Assembly (NCBI GenBank): GCA_947561395.2
Contig: OX387184.1
Coordinates: 41,902,766-41,966,765, forward strand
DNA length: 64,000 bases
Direction of reading: 5' to 3'
Source of the DNA: Buxus sempervirens
Lineage: Eukaryota; Streptophyta; Magnoliopsida; Buxales; Buxaceae
The notes below the pieces were generated by a model. That model was not told where the DNA came from, did no database searches, and saw only the letters and a list, made by a program, of their open reading frames with translations. The position numbers were made by a program, and so were the translations under genes. This document shows positions 41,462 through 62,542 of the stretch, in pieces; the first letter of the stretch is position 1, and every line of letters begins with the position of its first letter.

Positions 41462-43952
41462 TGTGAGACATGGAAAAATCACCGAGATGATTCCCCTCCG
41501 TCAACACACGGAGTCATCAAAAAATGGGAGAGTTGCTACCATTCAAATTCGGGTGTGAATGGACACCAAAAGATTCAAAATAAGCAAATAGGCAAATACT
41601 AGAGTAAAAATAACTCTACTTGAAAATCAAATCCAGATATGGGTAAGGGGATTAGATTATGAACGGGGGAAGGTGTTAGGCACCCCCATTCACCCACACA
41701 AGGTGGTTGCCAAGTGTTGTTCATGCTAAAAAAAATGAGAAAGCTTGCTAAAAGCATCAAAAACCTTGGAAAATGATTAAACACATATGTGATATTTCTA
41801 CATGAGAAATCCAAATGAATTCCGGATCCTCTTTTATATCCATATAACTTCTGGAATATCGCCAATAGATGGAAACCAAAGCAAAAATTGCACAAAACAA
41901 AGTTGAGTCAAATCCGGAAAATTCAATAAAAGATAGAGCCATTTGTCTTGAAATCATTCAAATCTAGTTTAGATTGAATTAAACCAAATCCATTTGAAAG
42001 ATTATGATAAATAGAAGACTCATGCAAATTTTCAATCAATTCCAGTTAAAATCCTAGGGGTTATTCTCCTTTGAAATTTGCTGCTGGAGATAATTAAAAG
42101 TGACAAGTGGGCAAGTTTGGAAAATCATTTAGAAAACTCGGCTCCATATAAATCAATAAAATTTGGTGTGAATGAAGTATGTATGGCCATCTTTCAAATG
42201 AAACTAGCCTCATGCAAAATTTCATTTGGATGCACCTTGGGTGACCTCCCGAACAGGCCTCGAGGATCACAGATTAACCCAGAAAAGTGCTGTTGAGCAC
42301 TTCTGAGTAAATCTGTTACCCACGACACAAATGGAGTCAAACAATTATGAAACCAACTGGATTTGAAACTAGACTTCCAAGGAAAATACAAAAACAAGAA
42401 TCACTCGAATCGGACTTAAAACGAACACATGGCGCTCAGTCGAAGTGACAGGTTCCGTAATCAGACCTGAACTGCCCTATAAACTTCGACAGAGAGGTGT
42501 CAAAAATCCGCTAAATAGAAATTGATGAAATTTTATAGGCATAAACGAGACAGCCTTACCTTTCCCATGGCTTTGGAATCACTCCAAAAGTCATCTGGAC
42601 GATGAAGTTACGAGTGTCCGAATTTGGGGTACAGTTGCTGTCAAGTTAAGCCTTTTTTAAAGAAAATCAACTCAAAACAGTGATAAGGTGTGTGGAATCC
42701 ATGCAAGGCAAATCAAAACCATTTTGAACAGATATTGAAGAACCTCTAGGATGAAATGGGGCCCAAGTTTGGCTCACCATCCTCTCCGATTGGAAAGGAT
42801 ATGCCAAAAAAACCCCAAAATTGAGCAAAAGTGCCCAAAACTGAGAGGTTAGACCTAGAGGTCTTCAAGATTTGAAATAAACTTGATTGAAATTGATAAC
42901 GAGCATTCCAGAATTGCTTGGGGCTATTTATTTTAGATCTACCACAATGACGGCAATAGATCCAAAATACAAGCCAAATCCGACAAAACAAGTGCTATGT
43001 GTGTGTGAGTGAAAATCCATTCTTCAATAATATAACAACATATAGCATGCATTCATATCAATCAAATGGGGTTCTAGAACAGCCTAGGGTTCCATTCCAT
43101 TATCGTTTCCCTTAGTTCTCTCTCCCCGTATAACGGTTCTTCGAGATAATCTTGGGGTACTTTGAATATGAAACGGTTTTCATAGAATCAAAAGGCTTAT
43201 TCCAACAAGGTTCTAACACTAGGATCAATCCTCAGTCTCGTTTCCCCTAGATCCCGCCTTCACGTTTTATGGCTAGGGGGAGTCTCGAGGTACTTTGAGT
43301 AGAGGAAGGGTTTTCACACACATAGAATAGGCCTTATTATACAGAAAGGTAGAAGAAAAGAACTAACTCTAGATTGTAAAGACAGAAAAATAAAGAGAGG
43401 TTTGAGGCTTACCTGGGCTTCTGGAAGCAACACTGCAGCAGTTCCCTTCTTCACTCGAAGCTCTTTGATCTCCAACTTCTTGGCAGAAGTTCTTTGCAAA
43501 AGTTATTGGCCATTTGCTTGAGGAGGAGCCTCCTATTTATAGGCAAAGGCTAGGGTTAGGGTTTGCAAGATGCTAGACACAAAATAATGTCTAGAGCCCA
43601 CCAACCTTAACCATAAGGTCATTTCCGAGATTTCCACTCCTTTAATAAAGGATATGATGGTAAAAGTGAAAACTCTCGAAAAACCCTAATTTTGAGCAAA
43701 AAATCATGTATCTGACATATTAGGTCGGATACAAGAGCACCTATATGTATCCGACATATGATGTCGGATACATTAAGAGCTGCTTATATACGACAACTTA
43801 TGTGGGATATGAAGAAGTATGCTTGTATCTGACCTGAGTTGTCGGATACAAGGAAAAATGCCTATTTTCTCAAATTTTGTGCTGGTTTCAAAGGAGATAA
43901 TGATTTTTGCCAATTATTAATCATTTTTACTGTGCAATTTGGGGTGTCTACA
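41462..43952 (-). repeat. LTR family B, 3' LTR (2491 bp)
   Basis: Minus sense from 43952 (TGTAGACACCCC) to 41462 (TGTCTCACA). Homologous to 49657-52146 (2490 bp). The 39-bp array starts at 43707, and the TATA box is at 43534-43541 (minus). Flanks do not match (CTTAG and ACAAC), as expected for one LTR of a longer element. A decayed PBS-like 9-mer lies at 41530-41538. Confidence 0.85.
43707..43850 (-). promoter_or_regulatory. 39-bp array B in the 3' LTR
   Basis: 27-bp inverted repeats TGTATCCGAC-(seven bases)-GTCGGATACA (variants) start at 43707, 43746, 43785 and 43824, exactly 39 bp apart. The third copy is the most diverged. Confidence 0.9.
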
Positions 43953-43956
43953 ACAA

Positions 43957-43965
43957 CCCCTCTTT
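43957..43965 (-). other. Polypurine tract of the minus-strand Tat element
   Basis: The minus strand reads AAAGAGGGG, then TTGT, then the LTR start TGTAGACACC. This marks 41462-43952 as the 3' LTR. Confidence 0.75.
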
Positions 43966-44329
43966 GCGGGAGTTGCGAAGCAATGAGCTGCAAAGATTAG
44001 ACAAGCCCAAATTGCACTCCCTTAACCATGATTTGCTTGGTTCAATTCAATTTTGCAAAATAATTTTTGGGTGAAGATTTGCCAAAAAGCCCTAACCTTA
44101 AGGGGGCATTTCTCCAAGAGGTCTTAAATTCCACTGAGCTCTCGTGGCTATGAAGTGGATTTTAAACCCAAAATAAGATTTTTGAAAACTGATATTTTAT
44201 CAAACGAAGTTAAAAATTGAGTGAATATTTTCCTTTTGACCAACACATTTCCCCAAGTTGTCCCAAATTCCACTGAGCTATCGTGGCTATGACGTGGATT
44301 TTAAGCCAAAAATAGGGTTTTTTTTTTTG

Positions 44330-44538
44330 AAAATAGCAGACTTTGTAGCACATTTTTTCTTTTTCTTCTTTTTTTCTCTTTTTCTCCTTTTCTTCTCTTT
44401 TTTTTTCTTTTTTCTTTTCTTTTTCTCTTTTTTCTTTTTCTTTTTTTTTTCCTTTTTCCTTTTCTTTTTCTCCTGTTTTTTATTTTTTCTTTTCTTTTTC
44501 TCCTTTTTTTCTTTTTTTTTTCTTTCTGTTTTTTCTTT
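44330..44538 (+). repeat. Polypyrimidine tract of about 200 bp
   Basis: Almost only T and C on the plus strand (purine-only on the sense strand of the element), between the polypurine tract and the first PMD promoter. The translations across it are artefacts of low complexity. Confidence 0.85.
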
Positions 44539-44617
44539 TGTATCTGACATAGCTCGTCAAATAAGAAGACCTCTATTTGTTTCCGACATACTTCGTCAGA
44601 TACACTTATTTATATAA
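44539..44617 (+). promoter_or_regulatory. Promoter of PMD gene 1: two array-B units and TATA
   Basis: Units resembling TGTATCTGAC...CGTCA start at 44539 and 44578, again 39 bp apart. TATATAA follows at 44611-44617. A CT-rich leader begins at about 44636. The first coding ATG is at 46086, so an intron-containing 5' leader is likely (splice-type TGTAG directly before that ATG). Confidence 0.65.
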
Positions 44618-46085
44618 GTTGCGCGTGACCGCGACTCTTCCTCTTCTTTTCTTCTTCTCCGATCGCCAACCCCGGACACATCTCTCCTTCTCCTTCATCC
44701 CCGACGGTCCTCCTTTCTTCTCCGGTTACTTCCGACGAATCCCCGTGGCTTCGACGTCGGCAATTGTGGTTAACTCCGGCAACCCCCTGTATTTCCGGCG
44801 ATTGGTATTCTCTGAGCCCTAGCTCTTTGTTTCCACCGCCATCTTTACTAGTTCCAGGCGATCCTCTAGTGGCAACTCGACGCCCTTGTGCACGAATTGT
44901 CTAAGCTTCAATCCCTGCTCTTGCTCCACCATTTTCTGTCTCCCACAGCGGCAGTAAGCATCCCATTTCCTTCGGCAATCCTCATAGTTTCAAGTAAGTG
45001 TTCTTACTTTGTCCGAAATTTTATCCCAACAGGAGCTGGTAATTATTTGCATAACTTGGGATTTGATTTTTCTGATTGCATGCTAGATTGCTGATTTTCT
45101 GCTCGCATGCTTTGGTTCCTTGGACTGCTGATTTTCTGATTGCATGCTAGATTTGCTGATTGCATGCTAGAACAAGCTTTGATCTCCCAATTTTGATCCA
45201 ATTTGCTGCAATTGTTTAAGATTGTCCTGCTGGTGATATTTCCTCACGGTTCCTACCGAAATTGACAGTGATCAGCATAATTTTTTCTTTTTGCTGTGTT
45301 TTCTCTTTCGATGCTTATCCGAGAACTTGAGCTTGTGGTTTTGCCAATCTCTAAAATTTTTTTGCAAGCCTATGTCTCTATCTCGAGAACATTGGATTAC
45401 TCGTGCTAATTCCCAACTGAATTGTTCACGGCATGTCTTTGCATTTCCAGACTTGATGCCATGTCTATTTTCCTGAAATTTGCTTTGACTTTCAAATTGG
45501 TCCTGCCCATTCCTGAGGTGTGGTTCTTTAACACTGACTGCCGGTGTTATTTATTGAATTGCTGGTTGTATGGCTTTTTTACTTTGCTCTTGCATTGCTG
45601 GTGATGAATGGCATGATTTTCTGGTTTTGCCAAAGCTTTTGATGAATTATTGATGGTGGCCTGCCCACTGTTGTGAAATTTTTTTTTTTCAATTCATCTT
45701 GACTTTCTGACATGGCTTGCCAATTTGAATTTCTTCCGCTCTATCTGCAATTCCTGTTTTTGATCCTTTGGCCTTCAATTTTCCCATATCCTGAAATCAC
45801 AACATATTAGGAAATATTAAGCATTGTAGGCATGTTTTAGAACTAGAAAACAGAAATATCCATCACTTCCAAAAACTTTGTAGATAACACAAATGAGATA
45901 AAATTCCCTCGAGAAATAATTCATGATAATTTTGAAAAAAATCATATAAGATTCCTAATGAATTTGAGCCAAAAACTAGATCCAAAAGCAAGGTGAGATT
46001 CCTGATAAATTTGAACAAAAACCTAGAGCAAGGTAAAATTTCTGATAAATTTGCACTAAATTTCATAAAACACTTCCCTGTGTAG
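44618..46085 (+). other. Leader and probable intron of PMD gene 1
   Basis: T-rich DNA without a convincing ORF. Short repeats of TTTGCTGATTGCATGCTAG lie near 45065-45170. It is read as 5' leader plus intron. Confidence 0.4.
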
Positions 46086-48869
46086 ATGGCTAGGAGTCGC
46101 TCTCGTGTGCGAGAGGAGGTTGATCCAGCTGATCAGCCCTCCACTTCGTGGGCTCGGACAGAGGCGAGTTCTAGTGCCACCCTGTCGAAGCCATTAGATG
46201 TTTCCAGAGAGAGCTCTGCTGAGGGCTCTGCTAAGGTAGGCTTCCCAATTCTTTCTTTCTTTTCTTGCTTCCCTTGAAACTGACTTCGCTTATTCATTTC
46301 TGTTTTTAGCCTGTTGTGGCTCCTGCACGAGGTCGCGGTAGAGGCTGAGAGAGAGGCGGAGGCCGAGTTGGAGAGAGAGGCCGAGGCCGGGCCGGAGCTT
46401 CAGGCCAGGAGGGTGTTGCTGTAGCTTTACGCCTAGGGATCTTTACGTAGCTGAGAGCATCTGTTCATGATACAAAGTTCCTTAGTGGTTTGGATAGCCA
46501 CCCCTCCATGTGCATCCGGGCCGATGTGCCTCTTCTGTATCCCTCCTTCTCATCTACGTGGCAGTTGGGGGAGATTTAGTGAGTTGGCGCAGACGCTTTC
46601 TCCGGCACTCAGGCGTGAGTTTGGCAGGTGCCGCCTGGATTATTTTCTCAGCATCCCTTCGTTCTGAGCCGACCGTCCCCTTATCTTTGCTATGATGGAG
46701 CGATATTTTCTGGAGACGCACTCATTCCATCTGCCAGACGTGGAGCTGGGGATCCGCCCTTCTGATTTTGTGATGATCATTGGCATCCCTCTGATGGGGC
46801 GGACCATCGTGTTGGATCGGCCTTCAGCGGCGGATATTGGCCTTCTCTTGGGATACCAGGACTTGCCTGGTGCTGCTTGGGATGAGCGGAGTGGTCGTAT
46901 CTCCATCAACTGGCTACGGGAGAGCCTTACCCGACATTTTGAGGGGAGACACGCGATCATTACCATGGAGGATGCAGAATTTGCACCTATCTTTCGGCAT
47001 GTGTTTCTGCTGATGCTCGGGAGCTGCTTCTTCCAGGAGGACACGACCAGTGTTAGTCCTATCTTTCTGGATGCTTTGAGAGATCTCCACCAGACCCGAC
47101 AGTTAGCCTAGGGTCGGCTTATATACGGGACTATCTTGGCTGGACTGTGCCGAGTAGTTCGAGGCCTGGCCGCTCCGAGAGGTGATGGAGTCAGCTGCTG
47201 GTTCTTTTGGCAGATCCTGCAAGTACTAAATTCATTTGTCTTGTCTTATTCTTCATGTTTTATCTTCTTTATCCTTGATTGATTTTTCTTTTGCCAGGTG
47301 TTTATGTACACCTATATGACTTACTTCCGCCCGTCCCCCGTGCCTGGTGTTGCGGAGTTCCCCGTTGTTTTACGGTGGTCGGCCCAGGTCCGAGATGCAG
47401 ATAGGAGTCAGCCCCGCACTGCGTAGGTTCACTTGGACCGTGCCCGACGATCTGATGTAAATTCTTCGCCCCTTTTCCTTTTATTTCTTTTCCTGTACCT
47501 TGCCTGTATCTGACCATCTTTTTCCTCTTTGCAGCTCATCCTGGCACACTTTGATGATGTGGATATTGGGGTGGCCCGTGAGATGATAGTACAGGATGCT
47601 TTTGATAGGGATCTTCGACGTCAGCCCTACCAGTGCTTCCTTGGGAGGTTTGGTAGGGTGATGTATTTAGGAGAGCGCTTGTACTATCAGCACACAGGCA
47701 CACTTCGTATCCCAGTTCCCCCTCCTCGTGTGGGTTCCGACACACTCCTGCCTGGTTTTGATATTGGCCAGTTTGACCAGTATCAGGATGTGGAGGGGCT
47801 CACAGTAGTTGGGGATTATGACGAATGGATCTAGAGAGTATCCATTGGGTGCTTGATGGATCGACCCACCCGTGCTGGAGTGACAAAGATCGGCGGGATC
47901 TATATTCGAGTGCACGATGACACTGTGAGTTTCATGATCTTCATTCTTTCATCTAATTTCCTTCAACTCTGCATTTATGACCCTAATTCTGTTCTTATTG
48001 GCAGGCACATGAGCTGAATGCTTTCTGGGACATGTTCCAGAGCTAGCAGGCCGCGATTGATGATATGATCGCAGAGCATGACACGGTTGTGGCCCAGACA
48101 GATGCTCGGATCAGAGAGCTGGAGGCTTTGGTTGCTGAGCTTCAGGCTGGACAGGTATCTTTATAATTTTATCTCTTTCATTTCTATGTCTTGCTGTTCT
48201 GATATAAACTTTTTGACTTTTGCAGGATCCAGTCCCAGATCACGATGTCTTAGTAGGGCCAGACCCTCCTGTTCCGGATTCCTCTCCGATTGGGGCTATA
48301 GATCCTTAGGACGCTCCAGCTGTTGTTCCTGATCCAGTCGCATCTCCTTCACTTGCTGCTCCTGCGGATCCTAGGGCTTCTGCGGATCCTGTAGTATCCA
48401 CCATTTCTGCTGCTCTTGTGGACCCTGCCGATACCTCATCTCCTGTGGCGGCTTTTGATCCTGCTCCTGAGGTCCCTGGTAAGTTTTCTTTAATTCCCTC
48501 TCTTTGGTTTGTTTTGATGCTTCCATTTCTGACTTTATTCCCATTGACCCAGATATTTCTGTTCCTGGCCCTTCTTTTGCTACTGCTGGGCCTTCTGGAG
48601 CTGCGGGAGCGGAGACCGCTGTGGCTGAGGGTCCAGTTGAGCCGGTTGCTGCTGAGCCTGAGGCTTCCTCACCAGACTCTACTCCTGACTTGCCTCCTGA
48701 TCTTTTAGACTATTGCTTGGAGTATCAGCTCTAGTCCATCGTGGGTCGGAGACCGCACTACATGGCCGAGCACCTTCTGGCATATTCTAGGCACCGACCA
48801 TCCCGAGGGAGAGGTCGTAGAGGAGCACGGGGCAGAGGACGCCGAGGTGATCCTGCACAGGAGCAGTAG
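46086..48869 (+). pseudogene. Plant mobile domain (PMD) gene 1, seven exons, broken
   Basis: Exons with GT/AG borders: 46086-46235, 46310-47222, 47298-47456, 47535-47924, 48005-48154, 48226-48478 and 48553-48869. Exon 2 holds the PMD core (ERYFLETHSFHLPDVELGI, then MIIGIPLMGRTI). Exon 3 has YTYMTYFRP and exon 4 FLGRFGRVMYLGERLYY. Exon 5 is coiled-coil-like, and exons 6-7 are Pro/Ala-rich, ending in RGRGRRGARGRGRRG, a likely nucleic-acid-binding tail. PMD proteins occur both as host silencing factors (MAIN, MAIL1) and in transposons. Stops lie in exons 2-7, with a frame change near 46570. Most stops are TAG. The gene is antisense to the surrounding Tat element. Confidence 0.75.
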
Positions 48870-49065
48870 TTTAGGATTTTCATTTTTTTTACATTATCAT
48901 TGTACAAAGAAACTTGTTTATATATGAAAAAAAACCTTTTTATTTATTCTCTCTTGTGATGCTCTCTTTTATTTTCATTTTCATGCAATTCAAGCTTGTA
49001 TACAGGTGAAACAGGTAAAAAATTCGGATTTTCCTTCATTTTCTCTTTTTTTTGCCTTTTTTCTT

Positions 49066-49228
49066 TGTATCCGATATATCAGATCAGATACACTGATATT
49101 TTTTTGTATCCGACATACTATATCGGATACACACAAGGTGACTTGTATCCGGCATTGTTCATCGGATATAAAGAGATTCTTTTGTATCCGATTTGATATA
49201 TCGGATACATTAAAAAAAGCTATAAATA
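49066..49228 (+). promoter_or_regulatory. Promoter of PMD gene 2: array B (4 units) and TATA
   Basis: Units start at 49066, 49105, 49144 and 49183, exactly 39 bp apart, each of the form TGTATCCGAT/C ... ATCGGATACA. TATAAATA follows at 49221-49228. Confidence 0.85.
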
Positions 49229-49328
49229 CGACTGGCCTCAGGATTTGAGTCGTTTTTACAACTTTTTGAGTTTAGGAACCCCCTTTTTCCTCCTCCTATT
49301 GATTCTTAGCTTGCTCCCATCATCTCCA

Positions 49329-49661
49329 ATGGATTCCGAATCATCTTCTGCCCTACCATTGTCTGTCCATGCAGCCTCCCCTGCAAAACAACCTTTTAGA
49401 GCAAAACCTCCTAATCTCACTAGGTACAGTCCTGTAGATTCATTCTACACTAGGTGGGTCAACTCCATGACCCTTGATGAAGAGATCAGATGGGATTCTA
49501 TTCATTTAGGCCACATTTTGCTCATCCCTTCCATCCCATTCAAGTGGGAAATTATTGAAGCCATGATTGGCCATTGGGTACTCGACCTAAACCTTTTTCG
49601 TTTTGGAAACCATGAGATGACCCCCACCATTGAAGAGGTTGAGACCATCTTGGGCTTGTAG
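49329..49661 (+). pseudogene. PMD gene 2, truncated N-terminal part
   Basis: 110 codons from ATG 49329 (MDSESSSALPL), chosen because it lies 108 bp behind the TATA box; an in-frame ATG at 49245 is only 24 bp from it. The sequence has the PMD pattern W...M.....I....L.HILLIP, then ALIG-like AMIGHWV and TPTIEEVETILGL. The frame runs into the LTR that starts at 49657, whose TGTAG supplies the stop, so the rest of the gene has been displaced by the insertion. No internal stop: this fragment is better preserved than PMD gene 1. Confidence 0.75.
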
Positions 49662-49758
49662 ACACCCCAAATTTCACAGTAAAAATGATTAATAATTGGC
49701 AAAAATCATTATCTCATTTGAAACCAGCACAAAATTTGAGAAAATAGGCATTTTTCCT

Positions 49759-49902
49759 TGTATCCGACAACTCAGGTCGGATACAAGCGTATATCTTTAT
49801 ATCCGACATAAGTTGTCGGATATAAGCAGCTCTTAATGTATCCGACATCATATGCCGGATACATATAGGTGCTCTTGTATCCGACCTGATATGTCGGATA
49901 CA
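49759..49902 (+). promoter_or_regulatory. 39-bp array B in the 5' LTR
   Basis: 27-bp inverted repeats start at 49759, 49798, 49837 and 49876, exactly 39 bp apart, about 165 bp upstream of the TATA box. The first copy has TGTATCCGAC and GTCGGATACA around AACTCAG-type centre sequence. Confidence 0.92.
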
Positions 49903-50067
49903 AGCTTTTTGCTCAAAATTAGGGTTTTCCGAGAGCTTTCACCTTTTACCATTATATCCCTTATTAAATGAGTGGAAATCTCGGAAATAGCTTTAGGGTT
50001 AAGGTTGGTGGGCTATAGACCTTATGTTGTGTCTACCATCCCACCAACCCTAACCCTAGCCTTTGCC

Positions 50068-50075
50068 TATAAATA
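50068..50075 (+). promoter_or_regulatory. TATA box of LTR B
   Basis: TATAAATA in the context TTGCCTATAAATAGGAGG, 411 bp into the LTR. Confidence 0.75.
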
Positions 50076-52148
50076 GGAGGCTCCTCCTTAAACAAATTGC
50101 CATTAACTCTTGCCAAGAAGTTGGGGATCAAAGAGCTCCGAGTGAAGAGGGGAACCGCTGTAGTCTTGCTTCCAGAAGCCCAGGTAAGCCTCAAACCTCT
50201 CTTTAATTTTCTGTTGTTACATTCTAGGTCTAGTTCTCTCCTTCTACCTTTCTGTAGATTAAGGCCTATGATGTGTGTATGAAAACCCTTCCTCTACTCA
50301 AAGTATCTCAAGACTCCCCCTAGCCGTCAAACGTGAAGGTGGGATCTAGGTGAAACAAGACTGAGGATTGACCTTAGAGTTAGAACCTATTTGAATAAGC
50401 CTTGTGATTCTATGAAAACCGTTCCATATTCAAAGTACCCCAAGATTATCTTGAAGAACTGTGTTTAACAGGGAGAGAAAACTAAGGGAAACGATAATGG
50501 AGAGGAACCCTAGGTTCTTCTAGAACCTTTTTTGTTGATCTAAATGCATGCTATTATGAAATAAGCCTTGTGATTCTATGAAAACCATTCCATATTCAAA
50601 GTACCCCAAGATTATCTTGAAGAACCGTGTTTAACGGGGAGAGAGAACTAAGGGAAACGATAATGGAACGGAACCCTAGGTTGTTTTTAGAACCCTATTT
50701 TGATTGATATAAATGCATGTTATCTTTACTATGTTGCTGGAATGATTCTTACACCTACACATACATAGCAGGTGATTTTGGCGGGATAGACTCATATTTC
50801 GGATTTATTGCATTTATTGTGATAAATCTGAAATAAATAGCCCCAAGCAATTTTGGGATATTTTGAAATGATTTTCAAAGGATTTTGATTCATTTTGCAC
50901 GGAATACACATACTTGGTCACTGTTTTAAATTGATTTTACTTAAAAAGGGCTTAACTTGACAGCAACTGTACCCCAACTTCGGACACTCGTAACTTCATC
51001 GTCCGGATGAATTTTGGAGTGATTCCAGAGCCATGGGAAAGGTGATGCTGTCTAGTTTAGGCCTGTAAAAGGTCATTAATTTCTATCAAGCGGATTTTTG
51101 ACACCTTTCTGTCGAAGTTGATAGGTCAGTTCATGTGTGAATATGGAACCTGTCACTTCGACTGAGCGCCATGTGTTCGTTTTAAGTCCGATTCAAGTGA
51201 TTCTTGTTTCTGTGTTTTTCTTTGGAAGTCTAGTTTCAAATCCACTTAGTTTCATAATTTTTTGATTCCATTTGTGTCGTGGGTAACAGATTTACAAGAA
51301 CTGCTCAACAGCACTTTTCTGGGTTAGTCTGTGATCTTCTGGGCCTGTTCGGGAAACCACCCAAGGCACATCCGAATGAATTCTTGTATGAGGCTAGTTT
51401 CATATGAAAGATGGCCATACATATCTCATTCACACAAAATTTCATGGATTTATATGGGGCCAATTTTTCTAGATGATTTTCCAAACTTGCCCACTGACAA
51501 CTTTTAAACATCCCCAGCAGCAGATTTTAAAGGAGAATAACTCATAGGATTTTAACCGGAATGGATTGAAATTTTGCATGAGTCTTCTATCTATCATAAT
51601 CTTTCAAATGAATTTGGTTTGATTCAATTTAAATTGGATTTGAATGATTTCAAGACAAATGGTTCTTGCTTTTACCGAATTCTCCGGATTTAACTCAACT
51701 TGGTTTTGTGCAACTTTTGCTTTGATTTCCATCTTTTGGTTATATTCCAGAAATGATATTGACATAAATGAGGATCTGGAATTCATTTGGATTTTCATGT
51801 GAAGATATCATACATTTGTCCTTTTTCAAGGTTTTTAATGATTTTTAGCAAGCTTTTTTATTTTCTAGCATGAACAACACTTGACAACCACCTCGTGTGG
51901 ATGAATGGGGGTGCCTAACACCTTCCCCCATTCATAATCTAATCCCCTTACCCATCTCGGGATTTGATTTTCAAGTAGAGTTATTTTTACTCTAGAATTT
52001 GCATTTTAGCTCTTTTTAATTATTTTTGAATCTTTTAGTGTCCATTCACACCCAAAAATCTGAATGGTGGCGACTCTCCCATATTTCTGTTGAGCCCGTG
52101 TGCTGACAGAGGGGAAATCATCCCGGTGATTTTTCCATGTCTCACAGC

Positions 52149-52166
52149 TGGCGACTCTGCTGGGGA
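52149..52166 (+). other. Primer-binding site, tRNA-Arg type
   Basis: TGGCGACTCTGCTGGGGA lies two bases after the LTR end. It is complementary, with one mismatch, to the 3' end of plant tRNA-Arg(ACG) as I know it. tRNA-Arg priming is known for Ogre/Tat elements. Confidence 0.8.
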
Positions 52167-52473
52167 CTTGTGGATTGAAGCCGTTTTGGTGTTTTGTTCA
52201 TGCTTTTCGTTACTTTTGAATGCTTGCTATTTTGATTTTTATCTTTCTTGCATGTTTGATGTGTCTTAGATTTGATTCAAATACTGAGAAATTCATATGA
52301 ATAGAGGCATGTATGTATTGTGTGGTTATGGCTGAAATCATGTTTGAGTGCCTTATCTTGTCACATATGTTTGCTTATTACATTGTTAAGAGAGCATGCT
52401 TGGTTTTGGGGATATATGAATATTTTTTGATCATGAGCATAAGGTCTGGAAATTCAGTATAGTTTTTTGGTTC

Positions 52474-53100
52474 CCAAGCATGTCTTCCATGATCAATTAT
52501 TGCTTGTACCATATGATTACTTGCTGTTTTTTTTGGCATGCCTTAAATTTGGGGTATGGGATGACATGATTTGAGCATGAAAACAATGAGCAGAAATTCA
52601 GAAATGCTTGGTGGGAATTTTTGGGATTTTCAAGCATATTTTCCCTAGCTAAAAGGCTTCTTGTACCGTATTGTTAGGTGCTGTATTTTTAGGCTTGGAT
52701 TTGGGCATAAAACAATGTCACTTGAGCATAAAAATGAAGAATACAAAATCTGGAAATTCAGTAGCTATTTGGAGGGTCCTCAAGCATGTTTTCGCCAACA
52801 AAACCTTTCTTGTACCATGTCAAGTAGTTGCTGTATTTTAGGCTTCAAGTGGAGGTATAAACCATGCAATTTGAGCATGAAAATGAGACCATAAAACCCA
52901 GAATTCAGTAGAGGTTTTTGGGGGTTTTTTAAGCATGTTTCCCCGGTTAAAAGATTCTTGTACAATGCATATAGTTGCTGAATTTTTAGGCTTCAATTTG
53001 GGTAAAAATAATGCACTTTTGAGCATGAAAAAAAAGAGCATGAAATCTAGAAATTTAAGGGATGTTTTGAATTTTACTAGCATGCTTTTCATGAGCTAAT
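52474..53100 (+). repeat. Degenerate tandem repeat of about 150 bp in the leader
   Basis: Units beginning CAAGCATG (or close) start at 52474, 52631, 52781, 52930 and about 53077. Each contains TCTTGTAC, GTTGCTG, TAGGCTT and GAGCATGAAAA in that order. Copies are clearly diverged. Confidence 0.75.
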
Positions 53101-54060
53101 GGTGATTTGTGCAATATAATGCCATGCTTGTATGCTACTTTGTGGGCATGTAATACTTGTGTGCATATTTGGTTGCTTTGGGTTAGCTTGCTTGCTTATG
53201 TTTCGCTTTCAATATAATGTCATATGCCTTGGCTTGAAATTGTATGCATGGCTACGAAAAAGAGTGGCAAGGGGCAGGGACGTTATGAATGCACCTTGAA
53301 TTTCAAATGCACTTGAGCACTTTAAACTATTTGCATAGCCTACCCATTACCTATAGGAAGTTGAACCATGAATGTGGGTAGCTTGGCGCACCGAGGTCGA
53401 TTACTTCGGAAAGCGAAAGTGAAAACATTCACCTTAGAATTTGAGTTAATGATGTGATGACAATGGGATCTGTGATTCGATTCCGGGCATCACTAGACTT
53501 GAGTTCTAAGTTGCCAATTAAGCCAAAACCCAAAAACCATACGCTTGAAGGTGGAGAAACACGTTTGCAGCTAAAAGTACACAATTACGTTTGGGGAATT
53601 GGGTGTAAATGTGGGAAGGCCGTTTGCATGTTCACAAGCCAAGGTATAATATGAATACCATATTGAAGGTAACACAAGGTAGCAAGGTAAAGCCATGTAT
53701 TCTTTTATCTTCATGTAAATTATAAAAAAAAAACCATGGTGTCCATATGCTTGGGATGAAATTTTTCCCAAAAATGTATATAACCCTAAGGTTGGTGTAA
53801 CCTATAGGATGAGTTTCCAACTCAATTTAAAGGTCATCCTACCCAAAGTCCATGTAGGAGTCAACCAAGTGTACAAGATCCATGAATTGGTGTCTAACTG
53901 TCAAAGGGACAAGTACCCTCATGAATGTGCATATTTTGCAAGTATAGTGCCAAAGCCCAATTTGGGGCTGGATTTAAAGGCCAAGTCAAGGTGAACATCA
54001 AGTGGGATTGAAAACAACATAATCTGGTGAAAAAAATGAGTCAAAAAGGGCCATTTCGGC
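53101..54060 (+). other. Leader of the family-B element, no ORF
   Basis: Part of the untranslated leader. It has only short ORFs without recognisable domains. Confidence 0.5.
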
Positions 54061-54204
54061 ATTAACCGGCAACTCAGGTCGGATAAGAAGAGTCTTATTC
54101 GTATCCGGCATACTTTATCGGTTACAAAGGCCTATGCGTGTATCCGATCATTTGTATCGGATACAATAAGCCATAGCTTTAGCCGATACTTCATGCCGGA
54201 TACC
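54061..54204 (+). promoter_or_regulatory. 39-bp array B in the leader
   Basis: Four diverged 27-bp units on the same 39-bp grid, starting at 54061, 54100, 54139 and 54178 (for example CGTATCCGGC...TTATCGGTTACA and TGTATCCGAT...GTATCGGATACA). The spacing is kept exactly although the sequence has drifted. No TATA box was seen directly behind. Confidence 0.85.
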
Positions 54205-54519
54205 TTCAAAAAATGCTCAAATTGGTTTTTCAGCCCAAATTTTCAGAATAAAATGCCTAAAACACTGTGGATAATCCTTAGGCACCCCAAAGAGAATATA
54301 AAATGTTTCAAAAAACAAAAAAAATAAAATAAAATAAAACAAAAATATATATATATATTCCTTCAGGATTTAACCTAATTTTGAAACTCAAAGAGGGAAC
54401 CAAGGTGTCATATTTTTTGATACCAATTCAATTCAAACATGTTACATTCAAACTTCTGAACTTGAAAACTGAGAAAATTTAGAAAAGAAAAAAAACCTTT
54501 GGTTGGTTATTTTTATCAA

Positions 54520-55735
54520 TCAAATCAAAAAATTTGTGGGACATTTGGAAGCCCAAGAATATTCCAAAAAATTTTGTTTGGTAACGAGAACCAATCAAAA
54601 TCAAAAAAAATTATGGGACATTTGGAAGCCCCAGAATATTCCAAAACTTTTGTTTGGTCACGAGAACCAATCAAAATCAAAAAAAATTGTGGGACATTTG
54701 GAAGCCCCAGAATATTCCAAAAACCTTTGTTTGGTCACGAGAACCATTCAAAATCAAAAAATTGTGGGACATTTGGAAGCCCAAAATATTCCAAAAACTT
54801 TTGTTTGGTCATGAGAACCATTCAAAATCAAAAAATTGTGGGACATTTGGAAGCCCCAGAATATTCCAAAAACTTTTGTTTGGTTACGAGAACCATTCAA
54901 AATCAAAAAATTGTGTGACATTTGGAAGCCCCAGAATATTCCAAAAACTTTTGTTTGGTCATGAGAACCATTCAAAATCAAAAAATTGTGGGACATTTGG
55001 AAGCCCCAGAATATTCCAAAAACCTTTGTTTGGTCACGAGAACAATTGAAAATCAAAAAATTGTGGGACATTTGGAAGCCCCAGAATATTCCAAAAACCT
55101 TTGTTTGGTCACGAGAACCATTCAAAATCAAAAAATTGTGGGACATTTGGAAGCCCAGAATATTCCAAAAACTTTTGTTTGGTCACGAGAACTATTCAAA
55201 ATCAAAAAATTGTGGGACATTTGGAAGCCCCAGAATATTCCAAAAACTTTTGTTTGATCACGAGAACCATTCAAAATCAAAAAATTGTGGGACATTTGGA
55301 AGCCCCAGAATATTCCAAAAACCTTTGTTTTGTCACGAGAACCATTCAAAATCAAAAAATTGTGGGACATTTGGAAGCCCCAGAATTCCCAAAAACCTTT
55401 GTTTGGTCACGAGAACCATTCAAAATCAAAAAATTGTGGGACATTTGGAAGCCCCAGAATATTCCAAAAACCTTTGTTTGGTCACGAGAACCAATCAAAA
55501 TCAAAAAAAATTGTGAGACATTTGGAAGCCCCAGAATATTCCAAAAACTTTTGTTGGTCACGAGAACCATTCAAAATAAAAAAATTGTGGGACATTTGGA
55601 AGCTCCAGAATATTCCAAAAACCTTTCTTTGGTCACGAGAACCATTCAAAATCAAAAATTTATGGGACATTTGGAAGCCCCAGAATATTCCAAAAACCTT
55701 TGTTTGGTCACGAGAACCAATCAAAATCAAAAAAA
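54520..55735 (+). repeat. 75-bp tandem array, 16 units
   Basis: GGGACATTTGG anchors start at 54538, 54615, 54691, 54766, 54840, 54915, 54990, 55065, 55140, 55214, 55289, 55364, 55438, 55514, 55588 and 55662. Unit length is 74-77 bp, mostly 75. Because 75 is a multiple of three and the unit lacks stops in several frames, long overlapping ORFs appear on both strands. These are by-products of the repeat and not genes. Copies are much more alike than those of the 150-bp repeat. Confidence 0.92.
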
Positions 55736-55845
55736 ACAAAAAACAAAAAAAAGGGGACAAATAAACCCAGACTTGTGTTCACCTAGCCTACTTGTCTACA
55801 TTTATAAGGGTGTGACTCAAGTTAAATTGAAGCTGACATGTTTCT

Positions 55846-58800
55846 TTGCTTTTTCTTCACCAGGTACAATCAATTGCCATCATTGCTCCCGTGACTAGAT
55901 CCAAAGCCCGAGCCATGAATATTGAAGAAAATCAAGCTCAAGCCACCGTACCTGCTCAGGACTTTGCTCAGCTGCAAGAGCAAGTGGCCGGTCTGGCCAA
56001 AATGTTGGGGGACTTATTGGCGGCTCAAGCCCAACAGGCCCAGGTCCAAAATCAAGCGTCAACTTCCCATCAAGCACCGCCACCTCAAGCCTACGTTCCG
56101 CCTCCGGCTCAACCCATGCCTGAGCCCGTCTCTGAACCGGTCCCTGAACCTATCCTGATCAGGGAAAACACTGTGGAATCTGAGAAAGAAATAGAGAAAG
56201 AAAAAGCCAGAGAAGAGATGGAAAGAAAACTCTTGCACAAGATAGAAAGAATCCAGGAAGAGCTTAAGGAGGTAAAGGGGGGAAACAGCTACGGAGGTAC
56301 CACCTTCGATGACTTATGTATGTACCAGGATGTATGCCTACCGGCCAAGTTCAAGTGCCCGAACTTCGACAAATTTGACGGCACAGGCTGCCCTATGAGC
56401 CACTTGAAACTATACTGCGGGGCCATATGCCAATTTGGCCGGGATGACGGCATATTGATCCAACTCTTCCAGAGGAGTTTGACAGGGTCGGCTCTAAGGT
56501 GGTTTGCCACGGTGGACCATGGAAGGATCAGGAGGTGGAAGGACTTGGCCGACGCCTTCTTGGATCAATACAAGTTCAACTCTAAGATCGTGCTAGACCG
56601 ATACGACATGATGAGAATGAGGAAGGGAAAGGAGGAGTCTGTACGGCAGTATGCTAAGAGGTGGAGAGAGGCCGCCTCCCAAGTCAGGCCGCCTATGGTG
56701 GAACCTGAAATGATCTCAACGTTTATGGGCACACTGGGGCAGCCTTTCTACAACCATTTGGTGGGGCAGATCACCACCAATTTTGCAGCCCTGGTACAGG
56801 TGGCAGACCAGATCGAGGAAGGGGTCAGGTCAGGAAGGCTCATTGACTACTCTACTTTGACTGGGCAATCTGATTCTGCCGCTTCCCTGGCACAGAAGAA
56901 GGGAACTGGGTTTAAGAAGAATGGAGCCAGGAAAGAAGGGGAAGTGAACCTGGTACAAGCTTCCCCCGCCAAGAAACCACTCCATGTCAACATATCCGCA
57001 GCTCAACAGGCCCAGCCAACCCAGCAATTGTACCAGACCCCGCACAATGTCAATTTCTCCCCCTCCGTACCTGCAAATCAGAGGAGGGCCTTTACCAAGG
57101 AAGAGAAGGATGCTTGGATGGCAGCAAGGAGGAACAAAGTTTTTACTCCCTTTCTTATATCTCTTTCCCAATTGTTACCAACCCTGCTGAAAGGGGAGTA
57201 TGTGACACTGAAGGAGCCCAACCCAAATGCCTCGAAGGGGAGGAATTTTGATCCAGTCATCACTTGTGACTATCACATGGGTGCACCGGGGCACTCTATT
57301 GACACTTGCTGGATGCTGAAGCATGCGGTCCAGGACTTGTTGGACCAGAAGGCCCTGGTTTTTAATAATGCTGCGCCCGCCACATCAGGAAGTGATATTG
57401 GGCAGAACCCTCTGCCTTACCACAATGGGGCAAGCCCGTCCAACTCCATCACTGCCATATCCACCACGAGAAGGGCCTTTGACCCATCTCAACTTATAGC
57501 TCCCGTGGGGACCTCGGTCAAGGTCCATTTCTTCCAAGAGGAAGAAGAAGAGGAGGTCAATGTGGTCTCCCAAAAAAATGATCATACTGCTGAGGACATT
57601 AGCTCCTCTCTGAACCGGGTCTCCTCCCTCATGGCCTAGATAAACATTGCAAGGCCTCCTCTGGTCTTCAATTGCAGTCCACCCACCTATACTCCAGCCA
57701 AACCATCAAAGGCTCCATTGGTCGTCAACCTTGACCCCACTACTGCATCCATCACCTCTTCAGTTCCATCAGCCACATCTGGGTCCAAACTTCAACCCAT
57801 GGTTGTAGATATTCCAGCTTCCTATAGTGTCCCTAGACCGGCCCATACATCCCGGTCCAAACTCCAGTAATTGGTGGTCAGTGTCCCCAAATTAGCCTAT
57901 TCTGAGGCTACTGTACCATGGAATTACAGCGAGGGAGTCACGACTACGGTTCCAGTGGTCAGGAACTAGAACCAGGAGGAGGTGAACCTCATGACGAGGT
58001 CGGGGAAATGTGTGGAAGGAGTAGAGAAAGAAAAAGAAATAGAGGTGGAGAGGGAGAGAAAAGAAACCGAAGAAAAAAGAAAGATGAAAGGAAAGACAAA
58101 AGTGGGAGAAAACACCCTCAGGGTGCAGAAAATGAGGTCAGACCTCATAAAAATTATAAAAAAAAGTGAATTCAATCTTGTGGATCAATTGAACAAAGTC
58201 CCGGCTCAGATTTCAATACTGGGCCTTTTGCTAAATTCTGAAAAGCACAGGGACGCATTGTTAAGGGTGCTACAGAGTGCACATGTATCCCAGACCATCG
58301 ATCCAGACCAACTAGGCAAAAAGGTTGGTCAAATCTTGTCACATAATGTGATAAGTTTCTTCGAAGGTGAGATAAGCCCAGGTGGGTGTTATCATGTTGA
58401 CCCTTTGCACATCACAGTGCTTTGTAAGGGCAGTATGATCGCACGGGTTTTAATTGACAATGGGTTGGCGTTAAACGTCTACCCGCTAATCACTTTTGTC
58501 AAGCTTGGTCTGGATCAGTCAAAAATCAAGCAGAATGGGGGGATAGTGAGAGCTTTTGATAGCTCTAAGACACACTCCCTAGGGGAGATTAAACTGCCGG
58601 TCACAATCGGACCGAATATCTTCAACATAACATTTGAGGTGATGGATATACCCGCAGCCTTCAATCTGCTCCTAGGAAGGCCGTGGATACACTTGGCTAG
58701 GGCAATACCATCCACGCTCCACCAAAGGGTGAAATACATAAGAGGGCAAAGGGTGATAACAGTCCTAGCTGAGAATTTGGTGCCTCCTATTGTGTCACCT

Positions 58801-59465: not shown

Positions 59466-60244
59466 TGTAAGCACCTTATTTTTTTGCACCCCTGGAATTG
59501 CTGAAAATGAAAACCCTGGCAGAAAGTCAAACCCCGAGGGGACAAAAAGTTGACTTTTTGATTAAGTGATATTTGGTCACCTTGCTTTATATCATTGGAT
59601 AGAGAATCTTGACACGATTCCAACGCAACTGAGTTTGCAAGAATCGGAGTCCGGATGAAGGTTCTGCGGGCGGTCAAACTTGGGCGAAGCCAAAAGTTGA
59701 CTTTCTGCCAAAATCCGATCCAGAGGCCTTGCTTTATACCATTGGATAGAGAATCCCGACACGATTCCAATGCAACTGAGTTTGCAGGAATCGGAGTCCA
59801 GATTAAGGTTCTGCGGGCGGTCAAACTTAGGCGAAGCCAAAAGTTGACTTTCTACCAAAATCCGATCCAGGTGCTTACCTCTAGGTCATGGGATAGAGGG
59901 CTCCGATACGATTCGAATGCAACTAAGTTTGCCTAGATCGGAGCCCGGATGAAGAAAATATGAGCCGACAAAATTCCCGAGCAGCAAAACCGGCAAACTG
60001 TCCACGTGGCAGAGAGCTGCACACGTGGCGAGTTGCGCAGGAAAATATCTCAGGGATCAAATCCATAAATATCCAAACATTCAAAATATCCCAGGGACTA
60101 AATCTGTAAAAATCCAAGAATATCGGATTAAATTGAAAATAACCAGGAACTAAATCCGAAAATTCGGATTTTCCGACCAAACGAGCAGCCGCATTAATGG
60201 TTTTTTAATCATTCGGTCGCTCGCGCGAACGTGGCAGGGGGTAT

Positions 60245-60303
60245 GCGCTCACCTTGAGGTGGGCGCCAAACTCGGTGGATACCCTCTGTCCTCTTCTATA
60301 AAG
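60245..60303 (+). promoter_or_regulatory. Inverted repeat and TATA box of LTR C
   Basis: GCGCTCACC and GGTGGGCGC separated by four bases (60245-60266), then TATAAAG at 60297-60303. Confidence 0.65.
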
Positions 60304-60954
60304 CCGCGCAAGGTTTCATTTCCAGGGGTTGGGGAAAATTTTGGTTGGAGATTTTTTCTTGGGTTGGGCATTTTCTGGGTTCAGGATTTTGAAGAAAAAG
60401 ACCAGACACACACGCCCCCCTCCCTTCCTCTTCTTCCTTGTCAAATCCGAAGGTCGTGCTCTTGGTGTGAGAAGAAGGAGGCTCCGGCAGCAGCTCGTGA
60501 GCTCCAGGGAACCATCCGGCCTGTTCTACAAAGGTTCGGAACCAAGGTGAGATCACTCTCTGTTATTGTTTTAACATGTAGAAATCGAGCATGTTTTCCA
60601 TCTCAGCAAGTTATTTTATGTTTTGGTTTGCTTGATTCGAAGGGGGAGCATGTTCCCCATGAATTCTCCATCCCTGTTGTTGTAACCCATAAAACCCCCT
60701 GTTCCCTTCTTCATAATCATGTTCTGTTAGTTAGGGTTTCGATTTCGGAAGTTTATTCATGTTTTGTTAATATTGTGTTTCGGATTTGTAAGTTTCCAGG
60801 GAGATTTGAGTGATGAGTGGTGAGGATATGTTAGGTTAGATTAATTTCCATTTGTGTTTAGAGGTCTTCTGGGGTTCCAAGGATCCCCAGAAAGTGCTTA
60901 CAGAGCTTTAAAACCTTAAAAATGGAGTTCGGAAAGAAAAAACAGGGAATCAGG

Positions 60955-61165
60955 GCTTGGCGCTAAGCTCGCACCCACTTAGTTTGGGTGCGCTGAGCTC
61001 GCGCCCACTTGGCGCGGAGCTCGCGCCCACCTGGCGCTGAGCTCGGGCCCACCTGGCGCTGAGCTCGCGCCCACTCATTTTGGGTGCACTGAGCTCGCGC
61101 CCACTTGGCGCTGAGCTCGCGCCCACCTGGCGCCTAGCTCGCGCCCACCTGGCGCTCACTTCATT
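60955..61165 (+). repeat. 22-bp word array in LTR C
   Basis: Units of the type GGCGCTGAGCTCGCGCCCACCT. AGCTCG starts at 60966, 60996, 61018, 61040, 61062, 61092, 61114 and 61136. Steps are 22 bp except two of 30 bp, where an extra eight bases with TTTGGG are inserted. It lies about 670 bp downstream of the TATA box. Confidence 0.85.
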
Positions 61166-61292
61166 TTTTTTTGTTTTTTTGCTGTTTTCGGTCCGCCCAT
61201 TTCGCACCAACTACCTGAGGTTGGCGCCTACCCCTAAAACATGCCGAATTGATATATTTTTGAAAAATTCCAAAAATGCCCTTTACTGTACC

Positions 61293-61423
61293 GCGGGGGG
61301 GCTTCGCCCCCCGCACCCCCACCCCTTTGTTCGCTACGCATTAACTAGTTCCTTGGTACGGGGAGGTACCCCGCCCCGTGGGCTCCGCTTCGCTTCGCTC
61401 ACAGGGGCCCCGGGTACCTCCCC
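61293..61423. repeat. GC-rich hairpin cassette in LTR C
   Basis: Hairpin 1 (61293-61314): GCGGGGGG and CCCCCCGC around GCTTCG. Hairpin 2 (61360-61423): 12-bp stem GGGGAGGTACCC / GGGTACCTCCCC, followed inward by CCCC/GGGG and GTG/CAC. Base composition is unlike the rest of the LTR, and the cassette is absent from the related LTR at 31521. Origin unknown. Confidence 0.75.
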
Positions 61424-62542
61424 TTGGACCTAGCATAATGAGCTAGTCCCCCCTTGCTAAGTATTAATTTTGATATGCTTCTGTGGCCTATATTCTGTAA
61501 CTACTTTTGCTAAGTATGGGTGGCATTCTTAAATCGAGCCAAATGAACCAATAGGGTTTCCGGGTCACCCCGAAACCCAACATGGGACTTGGACCCTCGG
61601 TCCAACATGATTTCCAGTGGGCCTTCCAACGGGGCCCACCCGGCCCAATAAACATGTATGCATGCAACTTAATCAAGATAAAGTGAAATTAACCGATTAA
61701 ACCAGGCGGGCCAAACTTAAGGCGGTCCACCCGAACCGGACTTGTGAAATTGATGCATGAAATGCGTGGTTTGGCCGAGACTACAGGTAGGGCCTATCGG
61801 GCCCACTAAGCCCATGAACCCAACCAACTTAGGGTTTCAAAACCCCAACTCAGGAAGTCTTGGGTTTTCAAGCCCAAGCCCAGGTAAAAGGCCCCAAGCC
61901 CAACACTTGGCCATTTTGGCACAGATAAGAAAGATAATCAAAACCACTTGGCAACCAACTGTGGGGGCCACCCAAGAGCCCACAAGGCAATCCCGGCCCA
62001 CTTTTGACATGGAATCCACTTAACTAATCCAACCTGAACTTCAAAATAAAATCAATTCAAAATTGAACCAAAGTCCAAAGGGCCACACTTGGCCCGCCAA
62101 GGAACATATGGGCCACACTTGACCCACCAAGGGATACCATGGGCCTTCCAACAGGGCCCACCCTACCAGACCCAGATCATCCTAATTAAAAAGATAAAAT
62201 CAAGTAAAGGGACCCACACCACTTTGGCGATCCCGCCAGACTTAATCCAATTTCATGCTGGTATAGGAATCGGGTGAGTGAGAGACCAACTGAATTGACT
62301 CAAACCAGGGAAACCTATGGGACCCGTCACTTGACGGGGTGGACTGGGGTGTCTACGGACTTCCCCAAACCGCAACCGAGAACCTACCTAGAATCTCAAG
62401 CCGCAGACCAAGCCTTAGTAGAAGAACTTAGGCACCCAGGTGTCTGCCTGCACCCCATCAGGCAGTGGCGACTCCAAACAAATCCCGAGGCACTCCTCGT
62501 TTCGCGGGCGCCTCGTCGTGCGACCGAAATCCGGTGCGCACA

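What the first reader, a model, noticed from the sequence alone, without database searches (positions are those of the whole stretch)
43707..54204. A 39-bp grid of inverted repeats shared by LTR, leader and both PMD promoters of family B
Seen directly: 27-bp inverted repeats (TGTATCCGAC, seven bases, GTCGGATACA and variants) at exact 39-bp steps in five places: 43707/746/785/824 (3' LTR of the minus element), 49759/798/837/876 (5' LTR of the plus element), 54061/100/139/178 (leader), 49066/105/144/183 (before the TATA box of PMD gene 2) and 44539/578 (before the TATA box of PMD gene 1). Word and period are kept while surrounding sequence differs. Inference: one DNA-binding protein, perhaps encoded by the element (the PMD protein is a candidate), recognises all five and couples the LTR promoter and the antisense PMD promoters. 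The CCGAC core also resembles the C-repeat/DRE core of CBF/DREB factors, an alternative host reader. Logic and architecture recall VANC proteins of VANDAL elements, which bind short motifs accumulated in their own non-coding DNA and remove silencing.
Basis: partly seen in the sequence, partly recalled or inferred. Interest (0 to 1): 0.88.

Follow-up and report, generated by a model that had tools for sequence, protein, structure and literature searches.

The report
Shared control sites across a retrotransposon
A plant jumping gene carries the same rigidly spaced paired DNA sites at its main promoter, its leader and its two backward-reading genes, and a sister family has changed the site's spelling at all these places together, as expected if a protein, probably its own, reads them.

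Summary
In detail: all 18 sites lie where stated, in exact 39-bp steps. They are four independent arrays, since the two LTR arrays are homologous; flanks of LTR, leader, PMD1 and PMD2 arrays are unrelated. Genome-wide, 1971 of 2006 facing exact half-sites within 30 bp have a 12-bp linker, while linkers are diverse. Where a half-site and TATAAA lie within 30 bp, 95 of 100 listed places have a gap of 10-11 bp. New: a sister family, about 73-83% alike, has arrays at the same four places, but its half-site reads TGTATCCGG(T/A) instead of TGTATCCGAC (position 9: G in 43 of 44 arms against A in 49 of 54; bias check 128). A concerted switch across unlinked arrays indicates a trans-acting, family-matched reader. 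Both antisense PMD-type genes are under purifying selection and are the best candidates, but that is inference: another PMD-bearing family lacks the grid in the stretch read. Words also mix. CBF/DREB is disfavoured. The logic resembles VANC/VANDAL; membership is not met.

The parts
41462..43951 (-). 3' LTR of the minus element (family B, Ty3/Gypsy, tRNA-Arg-type PBS as in Tat/Ogre)
   Evidence: inverted copy of 49658-52146; polypurine tract next to it at about 43952-43970
43707..43850 (.). LTR array, 4 palindromes at 39 bp
44539..44604 (.). PMD1 promoter array, 2 palindromes; TATATAA at 44611 (6 bp after)
   Evidence: homologous array in L037 6306-6371
46086..48868 (+). antisense PMD gene 1 (several exons; RG-rich N-part, PMD, helical stretch, RG-rich tail); broken by stops in this copy
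   Evidence: PF10536 E=2.7e-9 on 46668-47108; other features read from the sequence; dN/dS about 0.09
49066..49209 (.). PMD2 promoter array, 4 palindromes; TATAAATA at 49221 (11 bp after)
   Evidence: homologous arrays in L037, L045 (B) and L040, L042 (B')
49329..49657 (+). antisense PMD gene 2 (DUF7745/PMD), cut off by the plus element
   Evidence: DUF7745 E=0.0039, below its cut-off; homolog continues in L037 (DUF7745 E=2.4e-12) and L040 (4.1e-17)
49658..52146 (+). 5' LTR of the plus element (family B); TATA at 50068
   Evidence: TGTAGACACC start, PBS TGGCGACTCTGCTGGGGA from 52149
49759..49902 (.). LTR array, 4 palindromes, about 165 bp upstream of the LTR TATA box
54061..54204 (.). leader array, 4 palindromes, partly degenerate
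   Evidence: homologous place in L041 1429-1533
55837..57636 (+). gag of the plus element
   Evidence: PF03732 E=1.4e-11; 37-38% identical to two Tetracentron sinense proteins

Best explanation
The grid is a set of operators for a sequence-specific, two-fold symmetric DNA-binding protein. Each 27-bp unit is a pair of facing half-sites (TGTATCCGAC, 7 bp, mirror), placed at 39-bp steps and, at PMD2 and in many LTR promoters of a related type, ending 10-11 bp before the TATA box. The same operators stand at the LTR promoter, the leader and the promoters of two antisense genes, so one factor can couple genome-length transcription with the element's accessory genes and close a feedback loop. Shown: the grid, its TATA anchoring, and the concerted change of half-site spelling in a sister family.
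For: 3954 exact palindromes in 676.5 Mb, control 0. 1971 of 2006 facing exact half-sites within 0-30 bp have a 12-bp linker; the 50 linkers listed first give 32 distinct sequences, 24 clusters. CCGGATACA to TATAAA within 30 bp: 3150 against 90 reversed controls, 95 of 100 listed at 10-11 bp; AC word 627 against 11. Sister family B': same four places; position 9 G in 43 of 44 arms against A in 49 of 54 in family B; position 10 T/A in 41 of 44 against C in 42 of 54. Leaving out arms that served to fetch the loci: G 31 of 32, A 42 of 47. Positions 3-8 of the arms match the word in 260 of 264 cells of B' and 308 of 324 of B (hand sum from 76), though the families are only about 73-83% alike around them. 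Spacers can persist while arms change (LTR last unit CTGATAT in both). Mixed-word neighbours 1260 (77) against about 3960 expected from random assortment (hand calculation from 23, 71, 77). PMD1 omega 0.08-0.11, PMD2 pieces 0.07-0.37; dS between families 0.48-1.50. PMD2 exon hits on C1 within the span listed: 3 of 3, one being the query's own copy, have an exact array pair 83-85 bp upstream (lists of 71, 93).
Against: No binding data; no DNA-binding domain recognised in the PMD1 or PMD2 pieces. Within family B the arms not used to fetch loci are hardly better conserved than flanks (LTR 86% against 83%, PMD2 86% against 84%), only better than linkers (71%, 67%); for PMD1 the linker is kept (10 of 11). 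Steps are not always 39: in the distinct loci, 39 of 43 steps are 39 bp, the others 38, 64, 72 and 104. Family A (two intact PMD ORFs) has no grid in 9 kb without its LTRs and no shared promoter motif. Ten best PMD loci, some perhaps host genes, lack a grid within 1.5 kb. The word split leaks: 1260 mixed pairs; window leader 3 G of 8, one G each in the window PMD2 and plus-LTR arrays; L045 family B PMD2 array 3 G of 8. PMD1 TATA gap is 6 bp, and the family B LTR array is 165 bp from its TATA (1). An edge unit with spacer AACTCAG/CTGAGTT in 17 of 30 related arrays hints at ancient common descent of arrays.
Confidence: 0.65

Rival explanations
1. Host transcription factor sites: elements exploit a plant factor (CBF/DREB, auxin response factor, GARP/MYB type) and the arrays are ordinary LTR enhancers.
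For: Arrays of sometimes palindromic repeats are common in cis-regulatory regions of transposons (PMC10760457 passage). The AC word contains CCGAC/GTCGG.
Against: Base before CCGAC is T in 51 of 54 arms, and the sister word has neither CCGAC nor GTCGG (76). A concerted switch at all four arrays, with the grid unchanged, is not expected unless two host paralogs read the two words. DRE and auxin element cores are recalled, not from a call.
Confidence: 0.25
2. RNA hairpins: the arrays matter as stem-loops in the genomic RNA (packaging, export, small-RNA source), as argued for palindromes of maize Sireviruses.
For: By position all arrays can lie in the sense transcript of a full-length element; Sirevirus palindrome clusters attract small RNAs (PMC10760457 passage).
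Against: One-arm transitions that keep a G.U pair 23, that break it 49, in 98 palindromes of 25 arrays, related copies and partly fetched by exact match; fixed 12-bp linkers and TATA distance are not expected of hairpins.
Confidence: 0.07
3. Copy history only: one array spread by recombination or template switching to four places and is homogenised by conversion without selection.
For: Edge spacer AACTCAG/CTGAGTT recurs in 17 of 30 arrays, each time at an edge; in several LTR loci homology with the window LTR ends at the array.
Against: Linkers and flanks differ between the window's arrays; B and B' arrays keep place and nearly the unit number at high synonymous divergence; arms change in concert while some neighbouring spacers stay.
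Confidence: 0.08

Closest known systems
VANC/VANDAL anti-silencing system of Arabidopsis (PMC5735166 and PMC10398659, passages seen)
   Same: Transposon non-coding DNA holds many copies of a short word; related families use different words; the word set evolves in step; an element-encoded protein reads it.
   Different: VANDALs are DNA transposons; their motifs are 8-9 bp, arrayed in one orientation in tandem repeats that turn over quickly. Here LTR elements, symmetric 27-bp units on a fixed grid with unrelated linkers, often anchored to TATA boxes, and no protein-DNA data.
Palindromic cis-regions of maize Sirevirus LTRs, CACCGGAC-N3-GTCCGGTG (PMC10760457, passages; the 2016 paper is not held)
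   Same: Clusters of CCGG-type palindromes in an LTR control region of a plant retrotransposon.
   Different: Copia elements; other word and spacing; discussed as cis-regulation and small-RNA hairpins; no shared operators at antisense genes and no sister-family word switch in the passages seen.
Antisense genes of Retand/Tat elements (PMC11963269: abstract, discussion and passages seen)
   Same: Antisense ORFs between pol and 3' LTR, suspected of DNA binding and a regulatory role; family-specific tandem repeats.
   Different: There TRP28 (PF04195); here PMD and DUF7745. In the parts seen that paper names no target sites; here candidate target sites are found.
MAIN/MAIL1 PMD proteins and the DOWN promoter motif (PMC9899485, passages)
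   Same: PMD proteins linked to expression of genes that share a promoter motif.
   Different: Motif CATGCAGTTT in the MORC1 promoter; whether the complex touches chromatin is unknown there; host genes, not a transposon.
En/Spm TnpA and its subterminal 12-bp sites (recalled)
   Same: Transposon protein reads repeated sites at its own promoter and affects methylation.
   Different: CACTA DNA transposon; other word; no palindromic grid.

Membership tests
Ty3/Gypsy Tat/Ogre-type LTR retrotransposon | PBS for tRNA-Arg type, long LTR, gag, integrase in sense, antisense ORFs between pol and 3' LTR | tested here: met
   PBS at 52149 (tRNA-Arg assignment recalled, and described for Ogre in PMC9289625); LTR about 2.5 kb; gag; integrase rve E=5.9e-13 sense with PMD genes antisense in L040
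Ty3/Gypsy Tat/Ogre-type LTR retrotransposon | reverse transcriptase phylogeny within the lineage | not tested
   no tree was built
Retand elements with TRP28 | antisense ORF with TRP28 (PF04195) | tested here: not met
   the antisense pieces scanned match PF10536 and PF24924 or nothing, not PF04195; not every exon was scanned
VANC/VANDAL system | element-encoded protein binds the word and removes silencing | not testable with these tools
   needs binding and methylation data
VANC/VANDAL system | VANDAL DNA transposon carrying a VANC gene | tested here: not met
   LTR element with gag and integrase
CBF/DREB target (DRE/CRT) | RCCGAC core (recalled) | tested here: not met
   T precedes CCGAC in 51 of 54 arms; sister word lacks CCGAC (76)

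The most novel reading that the evidence does not exclude
A family of plant LTR retrotransposons encodes its own dimeric transcription factor from antisense PMD-type genes and forms a closed regulon: LTR, leader and both antisense promoters carry the same phased operators. The genome holds at least two matched operator-regulator pairs (AC word and GG word), and LTRs of an unrelated type (C) carry the same grid in either word, as if they borrowed the regulators or carry a DUF7745 gene of their own.
Probability: 0.5. Interest if true: 0.92.

Novelty: new variant of a known kind. Interest (0 to 1): 0.85.

Why it matters
What the antisense genes of Tat-lineage retrotransposons do is an open question in print (PMC11963269). 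Here the probable target sites are laid out with single-base predictions: two words, two families, four arrays each, and abundant natural copies. A two-by-two binding test would tell whether a retrotransposon carries its own family-specific transcription factor, what PMD and DUF7745 domains do, and how related elements in one genome avoid or share each other's control.

Tried and rejected
CBF/DREB and auxin-element readers: rejected as main reading because the sister word lacks the cores (cores recalled). RNA hairpin: disfavoured by the one-arm transition count. Recent duplication of one segment: not seen in flanks or linkers. PMD domain as sufficient mark of the grid: not supported. I first took a DUF7745 ORF in L039 (2166-3068) as a second counter-example; on checking, L039 carries the PBS-like end (9676) of the LTR whose arrays stand in the adjoining L036, and the ORF lies downstream in that element's direction among nested insertions, so it may belong to a grid-bearing element and counts neither way. 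Zero indels inside the family B LTR arrays is not evidence, because I chose complete 39-step arrays for that set and left out L002, L017 and L018, which have steps of 64, 72 and 38 bp; likewise the 92% arm identity is inflated by arms used to fetch the loci, 86% without them. Whether family C elements encode PMD genes: sought in L038/L039, L043, L044, L045 (58, 80, 104) without clear result. Search for solved PMD structures with a family A protein: none. Homologs of PMD2 in the protein collection: none at E<=0.001; of a family A PMD: one pea protein. A genome count for the 7-bp spacing inside palindromes did not complete; held loci, partly fetched by the pattern itself, were used instead. Species not identified: nearest gag 37-38% in Tetracentron. 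Print searches; no description of these arrays was seen in the listings and passages; TGTATCCGAC is in 26 papers, of which five listings were shown and none opened; nothing wider is claimed.
Full report
Check of the observation. All 18 sites exist at the stated coordinates in 39-bp steps; arms carry 0-6 mismatches of 20, and no other 27-mer of the window has fewer than 7. Searching with up to 3 mismatches gives 13 hits and none in 100 shuffles. The minus element's 3' LTR is 41462-43951, the plus element's 5' LTR 49658-52146; they are inverted copies, so the five places are four independent arrays. With the arrays left out, the only similar flanks are those of the two LTRs.

Genome-wide test. 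The window lies in a 676.5-Mb assembly. The exact palindrome occurs 3954 times, the backward control 0. Facing half-sites GTCGGATACA and TGTATCCGAC occur 2006 times within 0-30 bp, and 1971 of these are 12 bp apart. The 50 linkers listed first fall in 32 distinct sequences and 24 clusters. In loci already held (four overlapping ones left out), 71 of 90 convergent octamer pairs span 27 bp, 16 span 66 bp, 3 other values; 45 of 45 gaps between units are 12 bp. These loci were fetched partly by the exact pattern, so this last count is not independent. In the 15 distinct loci, 39 of 43 steps between successive units (<=5 mismatches) are 39 bp; the others are 38, 64, 72 and 104.

Conservation. One search compared seven complete family B LTR arrays, chosen by me for unbroken 39-bp steps, so their lack of gaps inside arrays says nothing. 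Arms used to fetch the loci are identical in 95%, other arms in 530 of 620 (86%), spacers 89%, linkers 533 of 756 (71%), flanks 83%. PMD2 (window, L045, L037): other arms 171 of 200 (86%), spacers 64 of 84, linkers 71 of 106 (67%), flanks 84%. PMD1 (window, L037): arms 33 of 39, spacers 6 of 14, linker 10 of 11, flanks 80%. The window's own two LTRs: arms 74 of 80, linkers 33 of 36, flanks 391 of 452. So within families arms are kept better than linkers but not clearly better than flanks. Family C: arms 85%, spacers 65%, linkers 69%, flanks 73%, not corrected for fetching. Of 115 grid palindromes A4 is kept in 229 of 230 arms (partly fetched by the word).

Anchoring to TATA. CCGGATACA followed within 30 bp by TATAAA: 1552+1598 places against 42+48 for the backward pattern; of 100 listed, 52 have a gap of 10 and 43 of 11 bp, with 42 distinct gap sequences. 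For GTCGGATACA: 302+325 against 8+3. Window PMD2 has 11 bp, window PMD1 6 bp, and the family B LTR array lies about 165 bp upstream of its TATA, so the anchoring is a feature of PMD2 and of family C LTRs, not of every array.

Sister family. CCGGATACA and TGTATCCGG face each other 7661 times within 30 bp (by eye the listed places are 30 bases long, a 12-bp linker). Two such copies, L040 and L042, and a leader, L041, align with the window mostly at 73-83% over PMD2, PMD1, LTR and leader. Arrays stand at the same four places: PMD2 4 units, PMD1 2, LTR 3-4, leader 3 (window leader 4). L040 has one 40-bp step. Position 9 of the arm is A in 49 of 54 arms of family B (window and L037) and G in 43 of 44 of B'; position 10 is C in 42 of 54 and T or A in 41 of 44; other positions are alike except a weak difference at position 1. 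Without the arms by which loci were found: A 42 of 47 and G 31 of 32. Arms are not independent units, so the Fisher values are only descriptive. L045, fetched later, is a further family B copy with G in 3 of 8 PMD2 arms; it was not in the table. Neighbouring units of mixed word number 1260, against about 3960 if arms assorted at random (hand calculation; 7661 may include a few gaps other than 12). So the split is strong but leaky, with GGC as a likely intermediate.

Family C. L014, L034, L035, L036, L031 and the right end of L045 carry LTR arrays of five units in two groups with a 103-104-bp break, then TATA 10-11 bp after the last unit; L033 has a similar, more decayed array for which no such TATA was listed. 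In the listing their LTRs match family B LTRs only within arrays. L014 and L034-L036 mostly use the AC word, L031 and L045 largely G at position 9. L036, L031 and L044 hold a second array downstream with TGTAGCCGAC or TGTAGCCGG. What these elements encode was not settled; a DUF7745 ORF (E=2.6e-18) lies in L039 on the inner side of the L036 LTR.

The genes. PMD1: PF10536 in the window (E=2.7e-9), L037 (62), L042 (114). PMD2: DUF7745 with PMD second. Integrase is in sense, both PMD genes antisense. dN/dS: PMD1 0.08-0.11; PMD2 pieces 0.07-0.37, the higher values probably from stretches that include the 5' untranslated part. RG-rich tails and a helical stretch that could dimerise are my reading of the translations.

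Mechanism. Shown: symmetric, phased sites; the same sites at four promoters or leaders; concerted change between sister families. Inferred: a dimeric protein reads them; a factor acting in trans on all arrays must have changed specificity, which is natural for an element gene and awkward for a host gene. PMD1 and PMD2 are the only accessory genes seen and their promoters carry the sites, so autoregulation is expected. Direction (activation, anti-silencing or repression) is unknown; upkeep at LTR promoters favours activation.

Against. PMD alone does not predict the grid. No DNA-binding domain or structure is known for these proteins here (16, 62, 81, 97, 114, 121).

Comparison. VANC works in a similar way in logic but differs in element type and site design; Sirevirus LTR palindromes are the nearest cis-arrays; Retand antisense genes are the nearest genes.

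Noticed in passing
30 sampled arrays (window and loci): An outermost palindrome with spacer AACTCAG/CTGAGTT (<=1 mismatch) occurs in 17 of 30 arrays, each time at an edge (20 of 115 palindromes; chance 0.27% each; arrays are partly related): common descent or a special edge unit.
   Followed up: partly
L007, L010, L012, L015, L018, L019 around positions 1450-2200 (L012 inverted): Homology to the window LTR stops at the array and another shared segment begins; arrays seem to be joints between LTR modules, perhaps by template switching.
   Followed up: partly
L030, L031; C3:45640023 and others: Another Tat-type family (A) carries two antisense PMD genes about 3.4 kb apart, open over some 550-590 aa, with many very similar copies, without the grid in the stretch read.
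   Followed up: partly
L036 629-860, L031 8712-8816, L044 9287-9391: A second array about 1 kb downstream of the TATA box in family C LTRs, with the half-site TGTAGCCGAC or TGTAGCCGG, mostly on the same 39-bp step.
   Followed up: no
L039 2166-3068 (minus strand): DUF7745/PMD ORF on the inner side of the family C LTR of L036; whether that element encodes it is open.
   Followed up: partly
window 54491-55810: Leader of the plus element holds a 75-bp tandem repeat array just before gag; L041 aligns to it.
   Followed up: no
window 59466-62470: An LTR of the family C type without palindromes (TATA at 60298, PBS-like at 62467) stands inside the plus element's coding region.
   Followed up: partly
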